From positions 1,488,001-1,552,000 of the forward strand of contig NZ_CP038498.1 of NCBI RefSeq assembly GCF_012427845.1: a stretch of DNA of 64,000 bases, written 5' to 3'. The notes under the pieces were generated by a model. The model ran no database searches and was not told where the DNA came from. It saw only the letters and a program-made list of their open reading frames with translations. The DNA is from Pectobacterium punjabense. GTDB lineage: Bacteria > Pseudomonadota > Gammaproteobacteria > Enterobacterales > Enterobacteriaceae. The position numbers were made by a program, and so were the translations under genes. How positions within the stretch are numbered: position 1 is the first letter of the stretch; every line of letters starts with the position of its first letter. This document shows, one piece after another, positions 5,030 to 64,000 of this stretch.

Positions 5030-6673
5030 ATGGCTAATCACCCAAGGGCCGGACAGCCTGCCCGACAGAGCGATTTGATTAATGTGGCACAGTTAACGTC
5101 ACAATATTATGTGCTGCGCCCGGAAGTCGGCAATACCGCGCATGCGGTGAAATTCGGTACGTCTGGCCATCGTGGTAGTGCGGGGCGTCATAGCTTTAAT
5201 GAACCGCATATTCTGGCGATTGCGCAGGCCATTGCAGAAGAGCGTAAAAAGCAGGGCATCAGCGGCCCGTGCTATGTCGGAAAAGACACGCATGCGCTTT
5301 CTGAGCCTGCCTTTATTTCCGTGCTGGAAGTGTTGGCTGCCAATGGCGTGGATGTGATCGTTCAGTTGGATAATGGTTTTACCCCAACGCCAGCGGTGTC
5401 TAACGCGATTCTGGTTCACAATCGTCAGGGCGGTGCGCTGGCGGACGGTATTGTGATTACGCCGTCCCACAACCCGCCGGAAGATGGTGGCATTAAATAT
5501 AACCCGCCGAACGGCGGCCCTGCGGATACCAACCTGACCAGCGTGATTGAAACGCGTGCGAATGCGCTGTTGGCAGATGAACTGCGTGACGTGAAACGCA
5601 TTACGCTGGATCAGGCGCTGAAAAGCGGACATGTCCACGAGCAGGATCTGGTTCAGGCTTATGTCGAAGGTCTGGCTAGTGTGGTGGACATGGCGGCGAT
5701 TCAACGCGCTGGCCTTAAACTGGGCGTCGACCCGCTGGGTGGTTCCGGTATTGCCTATTGGCAGCGCATTGCAGAACACTACAAACTGGATCTGACGCTG
5801 GTTAACGACGCTGTCGATCAAACATTCCGCTTTATGTCGCTGGATCACGACGGCGCGATCCGTATGGATTGCTCGTCAGAATTCGCCATGGCTGGGCTGC
5901 TGGCGCTGCGTGATAAATTCGATCTGGCGTTTGCCAACGATCCTGACTATGACCGCCACGGTATTGTCACCCCAGCAGGGCTGATGAACCCGAACCACTA
6001 TCTGGCGGTGGCGATCAACTACCTGTTCCAGCATCGACCACAGTGGGGACAGTCTGTTGCTGTCGGCAAAACGCTGGTATCCAGCGCGATGATCGATCGC
6101 GTAGTGGCAGATTTGGGCCGCAAGCTAGTAGAAGTTCCGGTTGGCTTCAAATGGTTCGTTGACGGTCTGTATGACGGCAGCTTTGGCTTCGGCGGTGAAG
6201 AAAGCGCGGGGGCTTCTTTCCTGCGCTTTGACGGCACGCCGTGGTCGACGGATAAAGACGGCATCATCCTGTGTCTGCTGGCAGCAGAAATTACGGCCGT
6301 GACGGGTAAAAACCCGCAGCAGCATTATGATGAGCTGGCACAGCGCTTTGGCGCGCCAAGCTACAACCGTATTCAGGCTTCCGCGACGCACGCGCAAAAA
6401 GCCGCGCTGTCCAAGTTGTCTCCTGAGCAGGTGTCAGCGAGCACGCTGGCGGGCGATCCGATTACGGCTCGTCTGACCGCTGCGCCGGGTAATGGGGCAT
6501 CAATTGGTGGCCTGAAAGTGATGACGGAGAATGGCTGGTTTGCTGCGCGTCCTTCCGGTACGGAAGAAGCCTACAAGATCTACTGTGAAAGTTTCCTCGG
6601 GGTGGAACACCGCGAGCGAATCGAGAAAGAAGCGGTAGAAATTGTCAGTGCGGTGCTGGCAAGCGCCAAATAA
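5030..6673 (+). CDS. pgm: Phosphoglucomutase (alpha-D-glucose phosphate-specific)
   Basis: Interconverts glucose 1-phosphate and glucose 6-phosphate, linking glycolysis with glycogen and UDP-glucose synthesis. It has 547 residues (E. coli 546). [15 protein letters not shown] at 44-58 is a conserved N-terminal substrate motif. The catalytic phosphoserine is Ser146 in [11 protein letters not shown]. The metal-binding loop ([11 protein letters not shown]) and the sugar-specificity loop [10 protein letters not shown] follow, and the C-terminal phosphate-binding loop is [18 protein letters not shown] lies just before the ATG. A hairpin terminator follows at once, so it is probably the last gene of its transcript. 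The enzyme is also linked functionally to galE and galM at the other end of the window through UDP-glucose. Confidence 0.97.
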
Positions 6674-6677
6674 GTGA

Positions 6678-6702
6678 AAAGGGCGCTGCTTGCAGCGCCT
6701 TT
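6678..6702 (+). terminator. Rho-independent terminator after pgm
   Basis: AAAGGGCGCTGC, a two-base loop, then GCAGCGCCTTT, starting 5 bases after the pgm stop. One G is bulged in the left arm. The 3' arm ends in TTT followed by C, so the U-tract is short. Confidence 0.65.
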
Positions 6703-6727
6703 CAGACTGCTGACAAACCTATTTACA

Positions 6728-6848
6728 GAACAAAAACGGTAGTAACGGAATAGAAGAGTAAAGCGTTTGCGCCAGGGATGGCGCAAGCCGAGCGCACAGG
6801 GATGTGTTTACAGCGTCTTTACGATCTATCCGTTACTACCGCTCTACG
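6728..6848. repeat. Palindromic intergenic element, copy 1 (pgm / EamA gap)
   Basis: About 121 bases with long terminal arms that pair with each other. The left arm CGGTAGTAACGG (6737-6748) pairs with CCGTTACTACCG (6830-6841). The arms continue inward as GAAGAGTAAAGCG and CGTCTTTACGATC with some mismatches. A central hairpin TTGCGCC / GGCGCAA is capped by AGGGAT. It lies between convergent genes. Near-identical elements occur at 10867-10987 and 63045-63240. I know no name for this family. Confidence 0.85.
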
Positions 6849-6878
6849 GGTTTTGTCAGTAACCTTCGTATAATAGGT

Positions 6879-7307
6879 TTATCCCAACGCGACCAGTAGC
6901 GCTCCGACGGAAATCAGCGCCACGCCAGCTCCCGCCATCAGCGAAATTTTTTCTCCCAGCAGAATGACTGCCAGCACGACGGCAAATACCACACTGAGCT
7001 TATCGATAGGCGCGACCTGTGCGACGTTACCGTTCTTCAACGCCACAAAATAAAATAGCCACGACAGCGCACCTGCGACGCCGCTGAGCACAATGAACAA
7101 CAGCGCTTTCTTATTAGCGATAACGTCACCGACCAGCGCCAGCTTACCTTGCGCGACCACTACACCCACCAGAAAAAGTGCCATGATGACGGCACGAATC
7201 GCGGTCGCCGTATTGGCGTCCAAATTTTGCAGACCGATCTTGCCGAATATTGCGACCATCGCGGCACATACGGCAGACAACAAAGCATAAATTAACCAAC
7301 TACTCAT
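6879..7307 (-). CDS. Half-size EamA-family membrane protein (putative transporter)
   Basis: 142 very hydrophobic residues with about five predicted membrane segments: 4-22, 32-50, 64-84, 90-108 and 120-140. Sequence such as GEKISLMAGAGVALISVGALLVA is typical of the end of one EamA repeat (drug/metabolite transporter superfamily). Full-length EamA transporters carry two repeats in about 300 residues, so this single-repeat protein probably works as a dimer, as known for small DMT-type proteins. I start at the ATG at 7307 (MSSWLIYALL), preceded by AGGGA. The frame is open 18 codons further up but without a good site. It lies 82 bases after kdpE on the same strand. Substrate unknown. Confidence 0.75.
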   Translation of the reverse strand: MSSWLIYALLSAVCAAMVAIFGKIGLQNLDANTATAIRAVIMALFLVGVVVAQGKLALVGDVIANKKALLFIVLSGVAGALSWLFYFVALKNGNVAQVAPIDKLSVVFAVVLAVILLGEKISLMAGAGVALISVGALLVALG

Positions 7308-10866: not shown

Positions 10867-10987
10867 GAACGAAAACGGTGGTAATGGGATAGAAGAGTAA
10901 AGCGTTTGCGCCAGGGATGGCGCAAGCCGAGCGTACAGGGACGTATTCACAGCGTCTTTACGATCTACCCATTACCACCGCTCTACG
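10867..10987. repeat. Palindromic intergenic element, copy 2 (inside the kdp operon)
   Basis: The same element as at 6728, again about 121 bases. The outer arms read CGGTGGTAATGGG (10876-10888) and CCCATTACCACCG (10968-10980). Where copy 1 has A, C and A in one arm this copy has G, T and G, and the opposite arm carries the matching changes, so pairing is kept. The central TTGCGCC / GGCGCAA hairpin is unchanged. It fills most of the 225-base gap between kdpC and kdpD, where its transcript could fold and alter the ratio of transporter to sensor expression. That effect is an inference. Confidence 0.87.
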
Positions 10988-11033
10988 GCCTCAGCGGGGT
11001 TCCGTATGATGATTAATAGTAACGCACTGTCGA

Positions 11034-43870: not shown

Positions 43871-44380
43871 ATGCAATTCAATAAAGTGCTGAAAGGCCTG
43901 ATGTTGGCTCTGCCGGTACTGGCAGTGGCCGCTTGTAGCTCCAACAAGAACGCGGACAATGACCAATCTTCCATGGGTGCGGGTAACAACGGCATGATGG
44001 ACGGCGGTAACATGTCTTCTTCTGAGCAAGCTCGTTTGCAGATGCAAGAATTACAGCGCAACAACATCGTTTACTTCGGTCTGGACAAATACGATGTGAG
44101 CTCTGAATTTGCTCAGATGCTGGACGCCCACGCTGCATTCCTGCGTAGCAACCCGTCTTACAAAGTGACTATCGAAGGTCACGCGGACGAACGCGGTACG
44201 CCAGAATACAACATCGCTCTGGGTGAGCGTCGTGCCAACGCGGTACAAATGTACCTGCAGGGTAAAGGCGTTTCTTCCGATCAGATCTCTATCGTTTCTT
44301 ACGGTAAAGAAAAACCAGCTGTTCTCGGTCATGACGAAGCGGCCTATGCCAAAAACCGTCGTGCCGTTCTGGTATATTAA
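43871..44380 (+). CDS. pal: Pal, peptidoglycan-associated lipoprotein
   Basis: An outer-membrane lipoprotein that clamps the membrane to peptidoglycan. It has 169 residues. The signal peptide ends in the lipobox LAVAACSS, giving the lipidated Cys22. A Ser/Asn/Gly/Met-rich linker follows. The OmpA-like domain (about 65-169) has [40 protein letters not shown] with the diaminopimelate-binding residues, and [20 protein letters not shown]. Confidence 0.98.
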
Positions 44381-44389
44381 GAGAATCGC

Positions 44390-45166
44390 ATGAGCAGTAA
44401 CTTCAGACGTCACCTGTTGGGTCTGTCGTTACTGGTTGGCGTAGCGGTCCCTTGGGCCGCTACTGCCCAAGCGCCAATCAGTAATGTCGGCTCAGGCTCG
44501 GTCGAAGACCGTGTCACTCAATTGGAGCGTATTTCTAACGCTCACAGTCAGCTTTTAACTCAACTTCAACAGCAGATCTCTGATAATCAGCGAGACATGG
44601 ACAGCCTCCGTGGGCAGATCCAGGAAAGTCAGTATCAGTTGAATCAGATTGTTGAACGGCAAAAACAGATTTATCAGCAGATTGATGGATTAAGTTCGCA
44701 ATCATCTTCTACACCGACGACAGGCGGCACACCTGCCGCTGCTGCGGGTACTGACACCGGTGCGGCCAATACGGCTGCACCGGCCAGTACGGGTGATGCG
44801 AATAGCGACTATAATGCCGCAGCTGCGCTCGTGCTGGAGAAAAAACAGTACGATCAGGCTATCAGCGCGTTTCAGGCATTTGTCAAAAAGTATCCAGACT
44901 CAACCTATCAACCAAATGCCAACTATTGGCTTGGTCAGTTGAATTACAACAAGGGGAAAAAGGACGATGCTGCGTACTATTTCGCCAATGTTGTTAAAAA
45001 TTATCCCAAGTCACCAAAAAGTTCCGAAGCCTTGCTGAAGGTTGGGGTGATCATGCAGGAAAAAGGTCAGGCTGATAAAGCCAAAGCCGTTTACCAGCAA
45101 GTTGTAAAAATGTACCCCAATACGGAAAGTGCAAAGCAAGCGCAAAAGCGTTTAGCGGGATCGTAA
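44390..45166 (+). CDS. cpoB: CpoB (YbgF), coordinator of PG synthesis and outer-membrane constriction
   Basis: A periplasmic protein that links Tol with PBP1B-LpoB during division. It has 258 residues (E. coli 263). Signal peptide to about 26 (LVGVAVPWAATAQA). A trimerising coiled coil at about 36-95 (VEDRVTQLERISNAHSQLLT). A Thr/Ala/Gly-rich linker. A C-terminal TPR domain at about 135-258 (YNAAAALVLEKKQYDQAISA, then ANYWLGQLNYNKGKKDDAAY). It is the last gene of the cluster, before a strong terminator. Confidence 0.96.
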   Translation: MSSNFRRHLLGLSLLVGVAVPWAATAQAPISNVGSGSVEDRVTQLERISNAHSQLLTQLQQQISDNQRDMDSLRGQIQESQYQLNQIVERQKQIYQQIDGLSSQSSSTPTTGGTPAAAAGTDTGAANTAAPASTGDANSDYNAAAALVLEKKQYDQAISAFQAFVKKYPDSTYQPNANYWLGQLNYNKGKKDDAAYYFANVVKNYPKSPKSSEALLKVGVIMQEKGQADKAKAVYQQVVKMYPNTESAKQAQKRLAGS

Positions 45167-45179
45167 TACCGTATTAATT

Positions 45180-45216
45180 GGCACAAAAATTGCGCATCAT
45201 GCGCGGTTTTTGTGCC
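45180..45216 (+). terminator. Rho-independent terminator after cpoB
   Basis: GGCACAAAAA and TTTTTGTGCC flank a nested GCGC / GCGC stem. The stem begins 13 bases after the cpoB stop. The 3' arm itself supplies the T-run. Confidence 0.75.
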
Positions 45217-45263
45217 TAAACGTCTTAAGAGTAAGCAATCAAACAGTTTTTTAAGAAAATAGG

Positions 45264-45291
45264 TTGCGCTGAAAATTTAAATCAGTAATAT
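45264..45291 (+). promoter_or_regulatory. tRNA-Lys promoter with GC-rich discriminator
   Basis: TTGCGC at 45264-45269, 16 bases, TAATAT at 45286-45291, then GTGCCGCCG. A GC-rich discriminator of this kind is typical of stable-RNA promoters under stringent control. It lies 50 bases before the mature 5' end of the first tRNA-Lys. Confidence 0.65.
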
Positions 45292-45341
45292 GTGCCGCCG
45301 TTGCCAAGGCAAACAGCGAAACGCTAAAGCAGCATGAAATT

Positions 45342-45417
45342 GGGTCGTTAGCTCAGTCGGTAGAGCAGTTGACTTTTAATCAATTGGTCGCAGGTTCGAA
45401 TCCTGCACGACCCACCA
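45342..45417 (+). tRNA. tRNA-Lys (anticodon UUU), copy 1
   Basis: 76 bases including an encoded CCA. The acceptor arms GGGTCGT / ACGACCC pair perfectly. The D-arm is GCTCAGTCGGTAGAGC, the anticodon arm TTGACTTTTAATCAA with anticodon TTT, and the T-arm CAGGTTCGAATCCTG. It is the same as E. coli lysT apart from one or two D-loop bases, and occupies the position of the E. coli lysT cluster between tol-pal and nadA. The valine tRNAs that accompany it in E. coli are absent here. Confidence 0.98.
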
Positions 45418-45457
45418 ATTTCAAGTTTGATAATTGATTTTGAATCGTGATGGATGA

Positions 45458-45538
45458 GAACCGAAAGGTTCGACAAAATCGGTAGTATCGATTTTGAACA
45501 GCGCGAAAGCGTTGGCCCGAAGGGCGAGTCCGTAGGAC
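45458..45538 (+). repeat. Chain of five mini-hairpins in the tRNA-Lys spacer
   Basis: Consecutive small perfect or near-perfect hairpins: GAACC-GAAA-GGTTC (45458-45471), AAAATCG / CGATTTT (45475-45495), AGCGC-GAAA-GCGTT (45500-45513), GCCC-GAA-GGGC (45515-45525) and GTCC-GTA-GGAC (45528-45538). Two have GNRA tetraloops. They lie in the precursor RNA between the first tRNA and a tRNA fragment. Confidence 0.75.
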
Positions 45539-45542
45539 GAGT

Positions 45543-45568
45543 AATCCTGCACGACCCACCAATTTCAA
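45543..45568 (+). pseudogene. tRNA-Lys 3'-end fragment (identical to copy 1 tail)
   Basis: The last bases of tRNA-Lys (AATCCTGCACGACCCACCA) plus the following ATTTCAA repeat exactly the end and downstream flank of copy 1 (45399-45424). The rest of the tRNA is missing. It could be a relic of a third tRNA copy or an attachment-site remnant of an integrated element. Confidence 0.8.
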
Positions 45569-45621
45569 ATGTAGTTAATGTAGTTGTAGTATCGGTAAGT
45601 ATCAAAGCAGTTCCGCATTGC

Positions 45622-45697
45622 GGGTCGTTAGCTCAGTCGGTAGAGCAGTTGACTTTTAATCAATTGGTCGCAGGTTCGAATCCTGCACGACCCACCA
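45622..45697 (+). tRNA. tRNA-Lys (anticodon UUU), copy 2
   Basis: 76 bases, identical in sequence to the copy at 45342-45417, with encoded CCA. It has no obvious promoter of its own and is probably cut from the same precursor as copy 1. Confidence 0.98.
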
Positions 45698-45770
45698 CTT
45701 CAGCAGTAAAGTTCCTCCCTTGAATAAATTCGTTTTAAATTACATATTGCACGTGTCGTGTAGGTGAGAC

Positions 45771-45858
45771 AAAACCATTGAAAATGGTTTTGAACAACGC
45801 TTGCGTTGACCCTGCAAGGGTGAGCCTTAGAATAAGGCGAATAACCTGCGCTTAGGTT
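45771..45858 (+). repeat. Second mini-hairpin chain downstream of tRNA-Lys copy 2
   Basis: AAAACCATT / AATGGTTTT (45771-45791), AACGC-TT-GCGTT (45796-45807), ACCCT-GCA-AGGGT (45809-45821), GCCTTA-GAA-TAAGGC (45824-45838) and AACCT / AGGTT (45843-45858). The stems differ in sequence from those of the first chain but the arrangement is the same. Less regular pairing continues to about 45905. The rest of the 45698-46162 gap shows no gene. Confidence 0.75.
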
Positions 45859-45913
45859 CGAGCCGAGCGAAGCGAGACAGCAACGCGTCAGCGCTGATCC
45901 TGAAGGCTGAGTC

Positions 45914-45931
45914 ATTCTGCAAGACCCACCA
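45914..45931 (+). pseudogene. Degenerate tRNA-Lys 3'-end fragment
   Basis: ATTCTGCAAGACCCACCA matches the tRNA-Lys 3' end (ATCCTGCACGACCCACCA) with two changes. The flank after it (GTAGTAAATTTCCCCCTC) resembles the flank after copy 2 (GCAGTAAAGTTCCTCCCTT), so tail and flank seem to have been duplicated together. Confidence 0.65.
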
Positions 45932-61902: not shown

Positions 61903-62949
61903 TTACTGGATGAGGAACTGGTACGTGGTATCCGAGCGATAGACTTTCCCCGGTTTCAGCCAGCAGTCGGGCTGCGGCCAGTCGGGGTGATTCGGGCTGT
62001 CTGGCAGGAATTCACTTTCCAGTGCGACACCGGCATAGTTTTCATACTGGCCGCCGTCTCGTGAGGGTGTTCCGGTCAGAAAGTTGCCGCTATAGAGCTG
62101 TAAGGCGGGAGCGCTGGTGAAAACGCTCATCAGCACGCGGCCATCGGATGACCATAAATTGGCTGCTGGGCTTTCGCTGGAGCCACAGGTGCGATGCAAT
62201 AAATAGGCATGATCGTAGCCGCCAACAGCCATTTGATCGCTATCGCGCAGGAAATCTTCCTCTAGCGTTTTGGGCTGGCGAAAATCCATGCCAGTCGCGT
62301 TTACCGACGTCAGGTCGGCGTTGGGAATGCCTGCACTATTGACGGGTAAATAATAGTCGGCAAATAGCTGCAACTGGTGCTTACGTACATCAGCCAGATC
62401 GCCATCCAGGTTGAAATAGGCGTGGTTGGTCAGGCAGACAGGACAAGCTTTCTCCACGGTAGCCTGATACGAGATTTCTAACGAGTTATGTTCGGTCAGC
62501 GTGTAGGTGACCTGAACATTGAGGTGCCCTGGATACCCCTGATCGCCATCCGGTGAGTGCAACTGGTAAGTCACCTGCGCTGCATCCTGACTCGTAATTC
62601 GCCAGCGGCGGGCATGAAAGCCTTCCGGGCCACCGTGCAGTTGATGCTCGTTCTGATTTGGAACCAAATTGAAGGTTTCGGCCTCTCGGCTGAATGTTGC
62701 TTTGGCTATGCGGTTGGCATAGCGGCCAATCGATGCACCGAGATAAGCGTTTTGTCGCGGATACTGCTCGGGCGATGCACAGCCCAATAAGACTTCTCGC
62801 ACCTCACCCTCTGGTAGCGGCAGCTCACAGGAAAGCCAGGTTGCACCCCAGTCCATCAGGCGCACGCGCATGCCTGCTTGATTCTGCAAGGTCGTTAATT
62901 GAAACGGCTGACCATCGGGTGCCAGCGTGCTAAGACTTTCATTCAACAT
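61903..62949 (-). CDS. galM: Aldose 1-epimerase (galactose mutarotase)
   Basis: Interconverts alpha and beta anomers of galactose and glucose at the start of the Leloir pathway. It has 348 residues from the ATG at 62949 (MLNESLSTLAPDGQPFQL), with AGGAG upstream. The frame is open for 59 more codons, but these run into the promoter and the palindromic repeat. Substrate and catalytic residues: GRYANRIAKATF, NEHQLHGGPEGFHARRW, His176 in TNHAYFNL and Glu311 in VALESEFLPDSPNH. It has its own likely promoter and is separated from galE. Confidence 0.95.
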   Translation of the reverse strand: MLNESLSTLAPDGQPFQLTTLQNQAGMRVRLMDWGATWLSCELPLPEGEVREVLLGCASPEQYPRQNAYLGASIGRYANRIAKATFSREAETFNLVPNQNEHQLHGGPEGFHARRWRITSQDAAQVTYQLHSPDGDQGYPGHLNVQVTYTLTEHNSLEISYQATVEKACPVCLTNHAYFNLDGDLADVRKHQLQLFADYYLPVNSAGIPNADLTSVNATGMDFRQPKTLEEDFLRDSDQMAVGGYDHAYLLHRTCGSSESPAANLWSSDGRVLMSVFTSAPALQLYSGNFLTGTPSRDGGQYENYAGVALESEFLPDSPNHPDWPQPDCWLKPGKVYRSDTTYQFLIQ

Positions 62950-63010
62950 GACTTGCTCCTGTAGAGGCCTGAGAAGATAGAGAAGGTTGGCCGATGGTTG
63001 TAATGTTGGG

Positions 63011-63039
63011 AAATTAAGCAGAAAGGAGTTTGCTGACAA
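63011..63039 (-). promoter_or_regulatory. Likely galM promoter
   Basis: On the minus strand TTGTCA (63034-63039), 17 bases, TAATTT (63011-63016), ending 62 bases before the galM ATG. Good spacing and near-consensus boxes. It sits between the palindromic repeat and galM, so galM need not depend on the galE transcript. Confidence 0.55.
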
Positions 63040-63044
63040 AGTAC

Positions 63045-63240
63045 GTCGAGCGGTGTTAATGGGTAGATCGTAAAGACGCTGCAAGTACGTCCCTGTAAGC
63101 TCGAGCCGCGCAGATATGAATCTCATCCCTGAGATTCACCCTTTTGGGGTCGCCGCAAGCGACGCTCAAAAACGTTCCTGACGTTTTTGTCCCTGGCGCG
63201 GACGCTTTACTCTTCTATCCCATTATCACCGTTCTTGTTC
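63045..63240. repeat. Palindromic intergenic element, copy 3, expanded by nested hairpins
   Basis: Same family as 6728 and 10867 but in reverse orientation and about 196 bases long. Outer arms: CGGTGTTAATGGGTAG (63051-63066) against CTATCCCATTATCACCG (63215-63231). The centre has extra sequence made of perfect small hairpins: TGAATCTCA-TCCC-TGAGATTCA (63117-63138), GTCGC / GCGAC (63149-63163) and AAAAACGT-TCCTG-ACGTTTTT (63167-63187). It fills the galM-galE gap together with the galM promoter. Nothing else is seen there. Confidence 0.82.
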
Positions 63241-63316
63241 CGTAAATGGGTTGTCAACGGTATGAATCAGTTCTGCTTATCTTCCCTTATCTGTCACTCA
63301 GCGTGAAAAAACGCCG

Positions 63317-64000
63317 TCATTCTTCGTCGTACCCGTTGGGGTGCTTGGATTGCCAGCGCCAGGTATCCTGCGCCATTTCTTGCAATGAGCGTGTGACCCG
63401 CCAGTTAAGATCTTTCGCTGCACGTTCGGCATCCGCCCAATAAGCGGGCAGATCGCCCTGACGACGGGGAGCAAAATGGTGAGCGAGCGGTTTACCACAG
63501 GCTTGGCTAAAAGCCTCGACGACCTGCAATACACTGTAGCCTACGCCAGCACCGAGGTTGTAAATGTGCACACCAGCACGATTTTGCAGGGTATTCATGG
63601 CGGCGATATGACCGTCGGCCAGATCGACAACGTGGATGTAATCCCGTACACCAGTGCCGTCAGCGGTAGGGTAGTCATTACCGAAAATCGCCAGCGAGTC
63701 GCGACGTCCGACAGCAACCTGAGCGATGTAAGGCATCAGGTTATTGGGCACACCCTGCGGATCTTCACCCATCTCACCCGATGGATGTGCGCCAACCGGG
63801 TTGAAATAGCGTAACAGTGTAATACTCCATTCCGGCTCGGCATGCTGCAAGTCTTGCAGAATTTGCTCGACCATCAACTTGCTGCGGCCATAAGGGCTAG
63901 CAGGGTGTCCCGTTGGGAAACTTTCTTGATAAGGTGTGCGTGGCTGATCGCCATAGACGGTGGCGGAAGAGCTAAAAATCAGGTTTTTTACGCCGGCTTT
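63317..64000 (-). CDS. galE: UDP-glucose 4-epimerase, C-terminal part (continues past the window)
   Basis: The last 227 codons of galE; the N-terminal NAD-binding part lies beyond base 64000. It interconverts UDP-galactose and UDP-glucose. Visible: IFSSSATVYGDQPRTPYQES with the catalytic Ser/Thr, the catalytic Tyr and Lys in SPYGRSKLMVEQ, then LLRYFNPVGAHPSGEMGEDP, GRRDSLAIFGNDYPTADGTG, VRDYIHVVDLADGH and FAPRRQGDLPAYWADAERA. Very similar to E. coli GalE. The next gene on this strand is galM; galT and galK do not intervene. Confidence 0.97.
   Translation of the reverse strand, partial: KAGVKNLIFSSSATVYGDQPRTPYQESFPTGHPASPYGRSKLMVEQILQDLQHAEPEWSITLLRYFNPVGAHPSGEMGEDPQGVPNNLMPYIAQVAVGRRDSLAIFGNDYPTADGTGVRDYIHVVDLADGHIAAMNTLQNRAGVHIYNLGAGVGYSVLQVVEAFSQACGKPLAHHFAPRRQGDLPAYWADAERAAKDLNWRVTRSLQEMAQDTWRWQSKHPNGYDEE

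What the first reader, a model, noticed from the sequence alone, without database searches (positions are those of the whole stretch)
63045..63240. Three-copy palindromic element with arms that change in step
Elements at 6728-6848, 10867-10987 and 63045-63240 share sequence and a long terminal inverted repeat. In the outer arm copy 1 reads CGGTAGTAACGGA and copy 2 CGGTGGTAATGGG. In each copy the opposite arm carries the matching substitutions, so pairing is kept although the sequence differs. Copy 3 keeps most of it with one mismatch. Such covariation suggests selection for the folded RNA or cruciform, or arm-to-arm gene conversion. It is not ERIC, and I know no name for it.
Basis: partly seen in the sequence, partly recalled or inferred. 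Interest (0 to 1): 0.72.

Follow-up and report, generated by a model that had tools for sequence, protein, structure and literature searches.

The report
Mobile hairpin repeat resembling RsmA-binding RNA
The three palindromes are copies of a mobile repeat in a Pectobacterium genome whose stems change sequence while staying paired and whose loops look like docking sites for the regulator RsmA (CsrA), so it may scatter RsmA-binding sites through the genome; this is inferred from sequence and not yet tested at the bench.

Summary
The host genome (Pectobacterium) carries 23 copies, 17 short and 6 long. In one copy per site, 98.7% of stem cells pair (93.7% shuffled), with 173 double changes against 58. 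At orthologous sites 10 in-step double changes were seen against 2.2 expected. A covariance model from these copies finds 60 distant copies at E<=1e-4, whose stems differ freely in letters yet pair in 94% of cells.

It is not nameless. Rfam Ysr224 matches half of the opposite strand. The architecture is TwoAYGGAY-like (RF01731), which Rfam puts in one clan with CsrB/RsmB. One strand has hairpin loops A-N-GGA: two in short copies (168 of 172), about four in long ones. Best explanation: a non-autonomous mobile element carrying RsmA/CsrA-type hairpins. It sits about 60 nt behind stop codons; 30 of 100 sites have flanking direct repeats, 22 of which fold as whole stem-loops.

RsmA binding is inferred, not shown. 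Strand preference is modest. Every literature search failed, so priority is unknown.

The parts
6703..6866 (+). Copy 1, short form, whole element with outer ends; GGA strand is +, the same strand as pgm upstream
6737..6749 (+). Copy 1 outer arm 5' (CGGTAGTAACGGA)
6829..6841 (+). Copy 1 outer arm 3', exact complement
6767..6786 (+). Copy 1 hairpin P3, loop AGGGAT (ANGGA, RsmA/CsrA type)
6794..6806 (+). Copy 1 hairpin P2, loop ACAGGGATGT (RsmA/CsrA type)
6681..6699 (+). Terminator-like hairpin behind pgm at which copy 1 is inserted; 16 of 25 genomes have no complete element there
6760..6866 (-). Rfam Ysr224 match (85.7 bits), antisense to the GGA strand and covering only part of the element
10867..11004 (+). 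Copy 2, short form, between kdpC and kdpD; GGA strand is antisense to the kdp genes
10876..10888 (+). Copy 2 outer arm 5' (CGGTGGTAATGGG)
10968..10980 (+). Copy 2 outer arm 3', exact complement
10906..10925 (+). Copy 2 hairpin P3, loop AGGGAT
10933..10946 (+). Copy 2 hairpin P2, loop AGGGAC
10899..11004 (-). Rfam Ysr224 match (71.3 bits)
63029..63265 (-). Copy 3, long form with four GGA hairpins, between galE and galM on their coding strand (outer limits read by eye; model match 63042-63240)
63219..63231 (-). Copy 3 outer arm 5' (CGGTGATAATGGG)
63051..63063 (-). Copy 3 outer arm 3' (one A-A mismatch)
63167..63189 (-). Cassette hairpin A, loop CAGGA
63117..63139 (-). Cassette hairpin D, loop CAGGGATG
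63083..63098 (-). Copy 3 hairpin P2, loop ACAGGGACGT
63108..63192 (-). Stretch used as the cassette query; the cassette (about 80 nt) distinguishes long from short copies

Best explanation
The three elements are copies of a short, non-autonomous mobile repeat (about 160 nt, or about 236 nt with the cassette). Its one strand folds into a long base stem (P1) carrying two hairpins with A-N-GGA loops; an 80-nt cassette brings two more such hairpins. Shown by computation: the fold is conserved by in-step changes; across genera the letters of P1 and of the P3 stem are nearly free while their pairing is kept; the GGA of the loops is nearly invariant while the base before it is free; copies sit just behind stop codons; and about a fifth of the sites lie between two copies of a whole stem-loop, so insertion appears to duplicate that stem-loop. 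Inferred: when the GGA strand is transcribed as part of a 3' UTR, the paired hairpins bind the dimeric regulator RsmA (CsrA), in the way that the hairpins of RsmB/CsrB do. Selection therefore keeps the stems paired and the loops GGA while letting the stem letters drift. Also inferred: the effect is to titrate RsmA locally or to mark the host transcript. The enzyme that moves the element is unknown.
For: Fold: 98.7% paired cells and 173 versus 58 double changes. In 60 distant copies (60 of the 62 model hits, those at E<=1e-4), 94.1% versus 53.8% shuffled, 34 of 34 pairs with both-side changes, 803 versus 226 cells, slid controls 111-167 (this alignment was fitted to the model). Orthologous sites: 10 in-register double changes versus 2.19 expected. 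Loops: both GGA in 168 of 172 short copies and in all short copies of 80 of 84 sites; long copies keep GGA in cassette hairpin A in 49 of 51 and in D in 48 of 51; mean GGA 4.06 on this strand versus 1.10 on the other. Changes on the element tree: P3 loop N 33 changes versus 0, 1, 0 in GGA; P2 loop N 25 versus 0, 2, 2. Distant copies: at least one ANGGAN hairpin on the matched strand in 60 of 60 and two or more in 49 of 60; none on the other strand in 59 of 60. The CsrA SELEX consensus (recalled) RTACARGGATGT occurs 5 times in the 4.79-Mb genome (reversed-pattern control 0) and 4 of the 5 lie inside these elements (against the coordinates). Rfam puts TwoAYGGAY and CsrB/RsmB in one clan, CL00106; the genome has RsmB (254 bits). 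Strand: new G-U 38 versus new A-C 19 on the GGA strand (p=0.023 against a 51% expectation that I derived from the unpaired columns); the consensus fold of 150 copies is -46.8 on this strand and -33.8 on the other. Context: 59 convergent, 35 tandem, 2 divergent of 96 sites, versus 46 of 160 divergent in the background. Hairpin duplication: 30 of 100 sites versus 2 of 1000 mispaired controls.
Against: No binding was tested. At orthologous sites alone the GU:AC count is 22:15, p=0.32. Single window copies fold slightly better on the other strand. The GGA strand matches the gene direction in 20 of 29 tandem sites, p=0.06, and window copy 2 is antisense to the kdp genes. The tree-aware covariation test is weak for most outer pairs, and some of its strongest signals are unpaired columns. 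Of the ten orthologous double changes only six go from one Watson-Crick pair to another, two describe one event, and two come from the pgm hot spot, where copies may be independent insertions. A transposase that reads folded single-stranded DNA could also keep loops and stems. The window copies do not score with RF01731 itself.
Confidence: 0.6

Rival explanations
1. The folded form is a DNA signal: a transposase or recombinase acting in trans recognises the single-stranded hairpins, so only well-folded copies move, and the arms look coordinated because only such copies spread. RsmA plays no part.
For: Mobility is clear: empty sister sites, both orientations at one site, hairpin duplications; 17 of 54 multi-copy site groups hold copies in opposite orientation. 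Folded-DNA elements with conserved hairpin loops are known (recalled: IS200/IS605, attC).
Against: In-step changes also occur within what looks like one settled insertion (for example the L098/L129/L372 site). Copies with the same stem mismatch (G-A at one position, 27 of 162) are spread over many sites, so perfect arms are not needed to move. A-N-GGA with a free N in four otherwise unlike hairpins fits RsmA better. No Y1/RAYT transposase (PF01797) was found in the own genome.
Confidence: 0.2
2. Arm-to-arm copying (templated repair in the palindrome) makes the second change; no selection on the fold is needed.
For: Some in-step changes are pair inversions such as T-A to A-T or C-G to G-C without a wobble intermediate; one site carries a wholly different 14-base arm on both sides (L020, L043, L104, L123).
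Against: The bulged A next to the arm is not removed (161 of 162). Hairpins P2 and P3 and cassette hairpin A covary as well. The GGA loops, which are not palindromic, are kept on one strand only.
Confidence: 0.08
3. A YPAL-like 3'-UTR hairpin repeat: the long stem protects the upstream mRNA from 3' decay, whatever protein binds.
For: Position about 59 nt behind stop codons and at terminator-like hairpins; similarity to a Yersinia transcript, Ysr224. What YPAL does is recalled, not read here.
Against: Stability alone would not keep GGA loops on one strand, nor add a cassette with two more GGA hairpins.
Confidence: 0.1
4. The functional product is Ysr224, a small RNA read from the opposite strand.
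For: Rfam gathering-level matches for copies 1 and 2; single window copies fold slightly better on that strand.
Against: The Ysr224 model covers part of the element and misses its main stem; in 59 of 60 distant copies that strand has no ANGGAN hairpin, and it gains A-C rather than G-U mismatches.
Confidence: 0.02

Closest known systems
Rfam RF01731 TwoAYGGAY (Weinberg et al. 2010, PMC2864571), clan CL00106 with CsrB/RsmB
   Same: Long base stem of free sequence carrying two neighbouring hairpins, mostly with ANGGAN loops, in the loci inspected; the model built from the present copies finds 3 of the 18 RF01731 loci that were searched (L454, L457, L458)
   Different: Window copies do not reach the RF01731 score. 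Pectobacterium loops are mostly AGGGA rather than AYGGAY, and copies are dispersed with hairpin duplications. The paper's table lists the motif as probably RNA, not cis-regulatory and not a riboswitch (outline and table passage seen)
Rfam RF02770 Ysr224 (Yersinia sRNA 224)
   Same: Homologous sequence; copies 1 and 2 pass the threshold
   Different: Ysr224 is the antisense strand and about half of the element, with another fold; no clan is shown for it
CsrB/RsmB sRNA (RF00018)
   Same: Many AGGA motifs, in hairpin loops as recalled; same Rfam clan as TwoAYGGAY
   Different: One match in the genome, a gene with many sites; here dispersed 2- or 4-site elements
YPAL repeats of Yersinia (recalled; paper could not be opened)
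   Same: Palindromic repeat with target duplications, behind stop codons, at terminators
   Different: Sequence could not be compared; RsmA-type loops are, as far as I recall, not part of its description

Membership tests
TwoAYGGAY (RF01731) | Score at or above gathering (43 bits) | tested here: not met
   No RF01731 match at E<=1 for copies 1 and 3, none at gathering in the window, 0 in the own genome (stricter filters)
TwoAYGGAY (RF01731) | Two adjacent hairpins with AYGGAY loops on one base stem | tested here: inconclusive
   Two loops with GGA in 168 of 172 short copies, but the strict AYGGAY form in 64 of 172 (P3) and 35 of 172 (P2)
TwoAYGGAY (RF01731) | Homology bridge | tested here: met
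   Model R1 hits L454, L457, L458, i.e. 3 of 18 RF01731 loci searched; L203 matches both families on opposite strands, both below gathering
Ysr224 (RF02770) | Score at or above gathering (70 bits) | tested here: met
   85.7 and 71.3 bits for copies 1 and 2; copy 3 58.7, below
CsrA/RsmA-binding RNA | ANGGA in hairpin loops, at least two | tested here: met
CsrA/RsmA-binding RNA | Bound by CsrA/RsmA | not testable with these tools
   needs a binding assay
YPAL (recalled) | Sequence identity to YPAL | not tested
   No YPAL sequence or paper could be reached
YPAL (recalled) | Target duplications, 3' UTR position, terminator targets | tested here: met
   the defining features themselves are recalled
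ERIC | ERIC consensus | not tested
   No comparison run; by recall the sequences differ
REP/RAYT or IS200-type system | Y1 transposase (PF01797) in the genome | tested here: not met
   0 matches in the own genome; control genomes ring in 5 of 14

The most novel reading that the evidence does not exclude
A class-wide family of mobile repeats spreads ready-made dual or quadruple RsmA/CsrA-binding hairpins into 3' UTRs by inserting at terminator hairpins and duplicating them. The outer stem is a structural scaffold of arbitrary sequence. The genome-wide set of copies forms a variable, lineage-specific sponge or tagging network for RsmA, with cassette gain and loss changing the number of sites per copy.
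Probability: 0.35. Interest if true: 0.82.

Novelty: new variant of a known kind. Interest (0 to 1): 0.62.

Why it matters
It joins things that are held apart: a structured-RNA motif of unexplained role (TwoAYGGAY), a Yersinia 'sRNA' (Ysr224) that looks like half of such an element on the opposite strand, and dispersed palindromic repeats of plant pathogens. If the RsmA link holds, insertions can add RsmA sites to transcripts across related species, a directly testable way in which a global regulator network is rewired by mobile DNA. The hairpin-for-hairpin target duplication is also an unusual integration footprint that should help to find the enzyme.

Tried and rejected
ERIC, CRISPR, attC and simple terminators were considered and set aside on anatomy (recall only, no search). 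A Y1/RAYT mover was looked for and not found. Phage carriage: no match in 50,697 phage records. Plasmid carriage exists: 15 of 72,556 records, one 76-77% match each, and 5 of 5,426 E. coli genomes, four of them on plasmids. The cassette as an independently mobile unit: in the own genome its 6 full matches are exactly the 6 long copies, although parts of it recur elsewhere. Element-to-element gene conversion as the cause of long/short exchange: the 45 nt beside the junction differ no more in exchanged than in unexchanged pairs (2.21 versus 2.22), so it is not favoured; the 42 of 106 figure is biased, because the second batch of genomes was fetched mainly by short-copy hits. In-step double changes are more frequent in pairs that also differ in the cassette (7 of 42 versus 2 of 64), so some may be replacements of a whole copy; this weakens the orthologous-site test. 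Folding energies of single window copies do not favour the GGA strand.

Rows dropped: 5 of 167 copies without both anchors; copies closer than 90 nt to a locus end and 78 duplicates (318 to 240); 7 of 84 site representatives before alignment A1 (arms out of register or unusual; one of them, L111, in fact has intact arms); pairs with more than 5 arm differences, and pairs with both flanks below 85% identity; 15 of 64 distant loci without a usable core, where 4 of the 49 used rows are second fetches of a place already in the set. For the model searches I gave 35 of the 64 distant loci and 18 of the 30 RF01731 loci, chosen after I had seen their cores, so the hit rate is not a blind one. In one search the best of up to nine copies stands for a site, whereas the control takes single pairings. 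In one search the P3 loop was required to contain ANGGA. In one search, 14 of 96 sites overlap a mechanical ORF of 70 or more codons; its background used ORFs of 100 or more codons.

Full report
What is there. The window lies in a Pectobacterium genome. The window is part of a single 4.79-Mb contig. Copy 1 stands between pgm and a convergent gene for a small protein with weak, below-threshold matches to transporters, copy 2 between kdpC and kdpD, copy 3 between galE and galM. Copies 1 and 2 have perfect outer arms that differ at three positions, each changed on both sides; copy 3 has one A-A mismatch. The own genome holds 23 copies, 17 short and 6 long (the long ones as 12 partial matches).

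Structure. I write the strand with TAGAAGAGTAAAGCG as the GGA strand. It has a 13-bp outer stem, a bulged A, a 4-bp helix, an internal loop, a 6-bp helix, and then two hairpins: P3 (TTGCGCCA-NGGA-TGGCGCAA) and P2 (TACA-NGGA-NGTA). In long copies an 80-nt cassette sits in the tip of P3 and brings a hairpin with loop CAGGA and one with loop CAGGGATG. Outside the outer stem pairing falls off: 9% of 162 copies at the next position, then one conserved A-T (75%), then 37% or less for the eight positions after it.

Is the covariation real? On one copy per site (77 sequences, 76 distinct; 76 from the genus and one from Samsonia) 98.7% of cells pair (shuffled 93.7%), 13 pairs have changes on both sides, and 173 cells do (shuffled 58, slid 3-16). 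Mapped on a tree of 162 unique short copies, in-register co-changes number 29 against 4.4 expected from off-register columns, 23 of them Watson-Crick to Watson-Crick. The tree is built from the same columns, so this is not independent. With a null that redistributes changes over that tree, one outer pair reaches E=0.03 and one P2 pair E about 0; the other outer pairs lie at about E=0.9 or more, and three combinations of columns that are not pairs of this structure also reach E about 0. So the signal is real but carried by few independent events. At orthologous insertion sites, 106 comparisons gave 67 single and 10 in-register double changes against 2.19 expected (a looser set of 114 gave 11 against 2.0). 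Six of the ten are Watson-Crick to Watson-Crick. Two share one event (L033 with L173 and L002), two come from the pgm hot spot, and doubles are enriched in pairs that also differ in the cassette (7 of 42 versus 2 of 64), so some may be replacements of whole copies. The site L098/L129/L372, with its own unusual flanks, shows a T-A to A-T change in place.

Wider family. The search with Rfam RF02770 over 295 genomes of the order found matches in 27 (4 above the cut-off). Many of the weaker ones share little more than the core GAGCCTACANGGAYGTATTYACGGC and a neighbouring ANGGA hairpin, while their outer arms are unrelated in sequence and still complementary, up to 35 bp (arm score at least 10 in 29 of 49 rows against 23 of 1500 mispaired arms). 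A covariance model built from the Pectobacterium copies and the one Samsonia copy found 62 hits at E<=0.1 in the 53 distant loci given to it, up to 82.5 bits; the same alignment without structure gave 51 with lower bit scores, up to 48.8, though for L201 with a slightly better E-value. On the 60 hits at E<=1e-4, 94.1% of cells pair against 53.8% shuffled, all 34 pairs have both-side changes, and most outer-stem pairs show all six pair types (the alignment is fitted to the model). In these genomes copies often stand in clusters or inverted pairs, neighbours mostly with arms of their own, for example six within 1 kb in L183.

Identity. Rfam Ysr224 matches the opposite strand and only part of the element. 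The loop motif led to RF01731 TwoAYGGAY: L203 matches it at 30.7 bits (below its 43-bit cut-off) on the GGA strand. RF01731 itself rings in 17 of 274 genomes of the class, often several times per genome, and not in the own genome; three of the 18 such loci searched are hit by my model. Rfam puts RF01731 in clan CL00106, and my control scan of E. coli K-12 csrB and the own RsmB shows CsrB/RsmB in that clan. Weinberg et al. 2010 (PMC2864571; outline and table passage seen) list TwoAYGGAY as probably RNA, not cis-regulatory, in gut samples, gamma-Proteobacteria and Clostridiales.

Why RsmA/CsrA. CsrA is known (recalled) to bind ANGGA in hairpin loops, with SELEX consensus RUACARGGAUGU, and to bridge two sites as a dimer. 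Here both loops keep GGA in 168 of 172 short copies, and in every short copy of 80 of 84 sites, while the base before GGA changes freely (33 and 25 changes against 0-2 in GGA). The two GGA start 24 nt apart. The cassette adds two further hairpins that keep GGA in 49 and 48 of 51 long copies, and hairpin A itself covaries. The other strand has few GGA and, in the distant set, practically no ANGGAN hairpins (59 of 60 none). Of the five exact SELEX-type sites in the genome four lie in these elements. Parts of the cassette recur elsewhere in the genome; 15 of 24 such loci inspected (two of them overlapping) carry ANGGA hairpins, against 20 in both strands of the whole 64-kb window, elements included (my notebook entry says 14, an undercount). 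So a second dispersed family uses the same loops.

Which strand? New G-U mismatches outnumber new A-C mismatches 38 to 19 on the GGA strand; from the unpaired columns I expect about 51%, p=0.023. The consensus fold is better on this strand (150 of 172 copies). In the orthologous-site set the count is 22 to 15, not significant, and the three window copies taken singly fold slightly better on the other strand. The strand preference is therefore modest.

Mobility and target. Of 25 Pectobacterium genomes, 9 have a complete element behind pgm, 5 in one and 4 in the other orientation, with empty close relatives; 6 of the 20 with the kdp locus have one there; 5 of 25 have a long one in gal, with remnants in others. 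Over 54 sites with two or more copies, 17 hold both orientations. Over 96 sites, 59 are convergent, 35 tandem and 2 divergent, against 23, 91 and 46 of 160 element-free gaps; the median distance to a stop codon is 59 nt (mechanical ORFs). In 30 of 100 sites the flanks carry a direct repeat (2 of 1000 controls), mostly at a similar distance from the ends, and 22 of the 30 repeats fold as a stem-loop. In G305 the whole pgm terminator hairpin stands on both sides. Insertion thus seems to act on a hairpin and to leave it doubled. The mover is unknown; no Y1 transposase was found in the genome.

Verdict. The finding is real and larger than stated: a mobile, structurally selected repeat with RsmA/CsrA-type loops, of TwoAYGGAY-like architecture. 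Membership in RF01731 by score is not met, so I file it as a new variant of that kind. RsmA binding and its consequence are inferred. All literature searches failed technically, so I make no claim that this is unpublished.

Noticed in passing
G000:C1:2169797-2169911 (L407), 2240770 (L499), 702658 (L483), 6152 (L405): A second dispersed repeat family of the same genome, partly in tandem units of about 73 bp, is built of ANGGA hairpins and shares modules with the cassette of the long copies.
   Followed up: partly
L183, L424, L423, L187, L190, L198, L201, L420, L428, L439, L457, L182: Distant copies stand in clusters or inverted pairs, neighbours mostly having unrelated but self-complementary arms.
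   Followed up: partly
L006/L143, L137/L044, kdp site G000/G312 and G003/G313: At one and the same site the short and long interiors replace each other exactly, with unchanged or nearly unchanged arms.
   Followed up: partly
L208 and 14 further plasmid records: A related copy sits on plasmids of Escherichia, Klebsiella, Citrobacter and Shigella; in the one inspected, L208, again between two hairpin repeats.
   Followed up: partly
window 6673-6879: The pgm terminator is a recurrent insertion place: both orientations, patchy over the tree, one internal deletion at a CTTT microhomology (G315).
   Followed up: partly
window 44281-45931: Two tRNA-Lys genes, each followed by an RtT RNA match; and a CpoB/ybgF thermometer match at 44281-44419.
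   Followed up: no
L245 and L248, kdpC-kdpD gap: What looks by recall like an ERIC element occupies the gap where other genomes carry the present repeat.
   Followed up: no
window 61903-64000: galE and galM are adjacent with only the repeat between them; galT and galK do not lie between them, and were not looked for elsewhere.
   Followed up: no
L020, L043, L104, L123: One insertion site carries a completely different 14-base outer arm, complementary on both sides; its origin is unexplained.
   Followed up: partly
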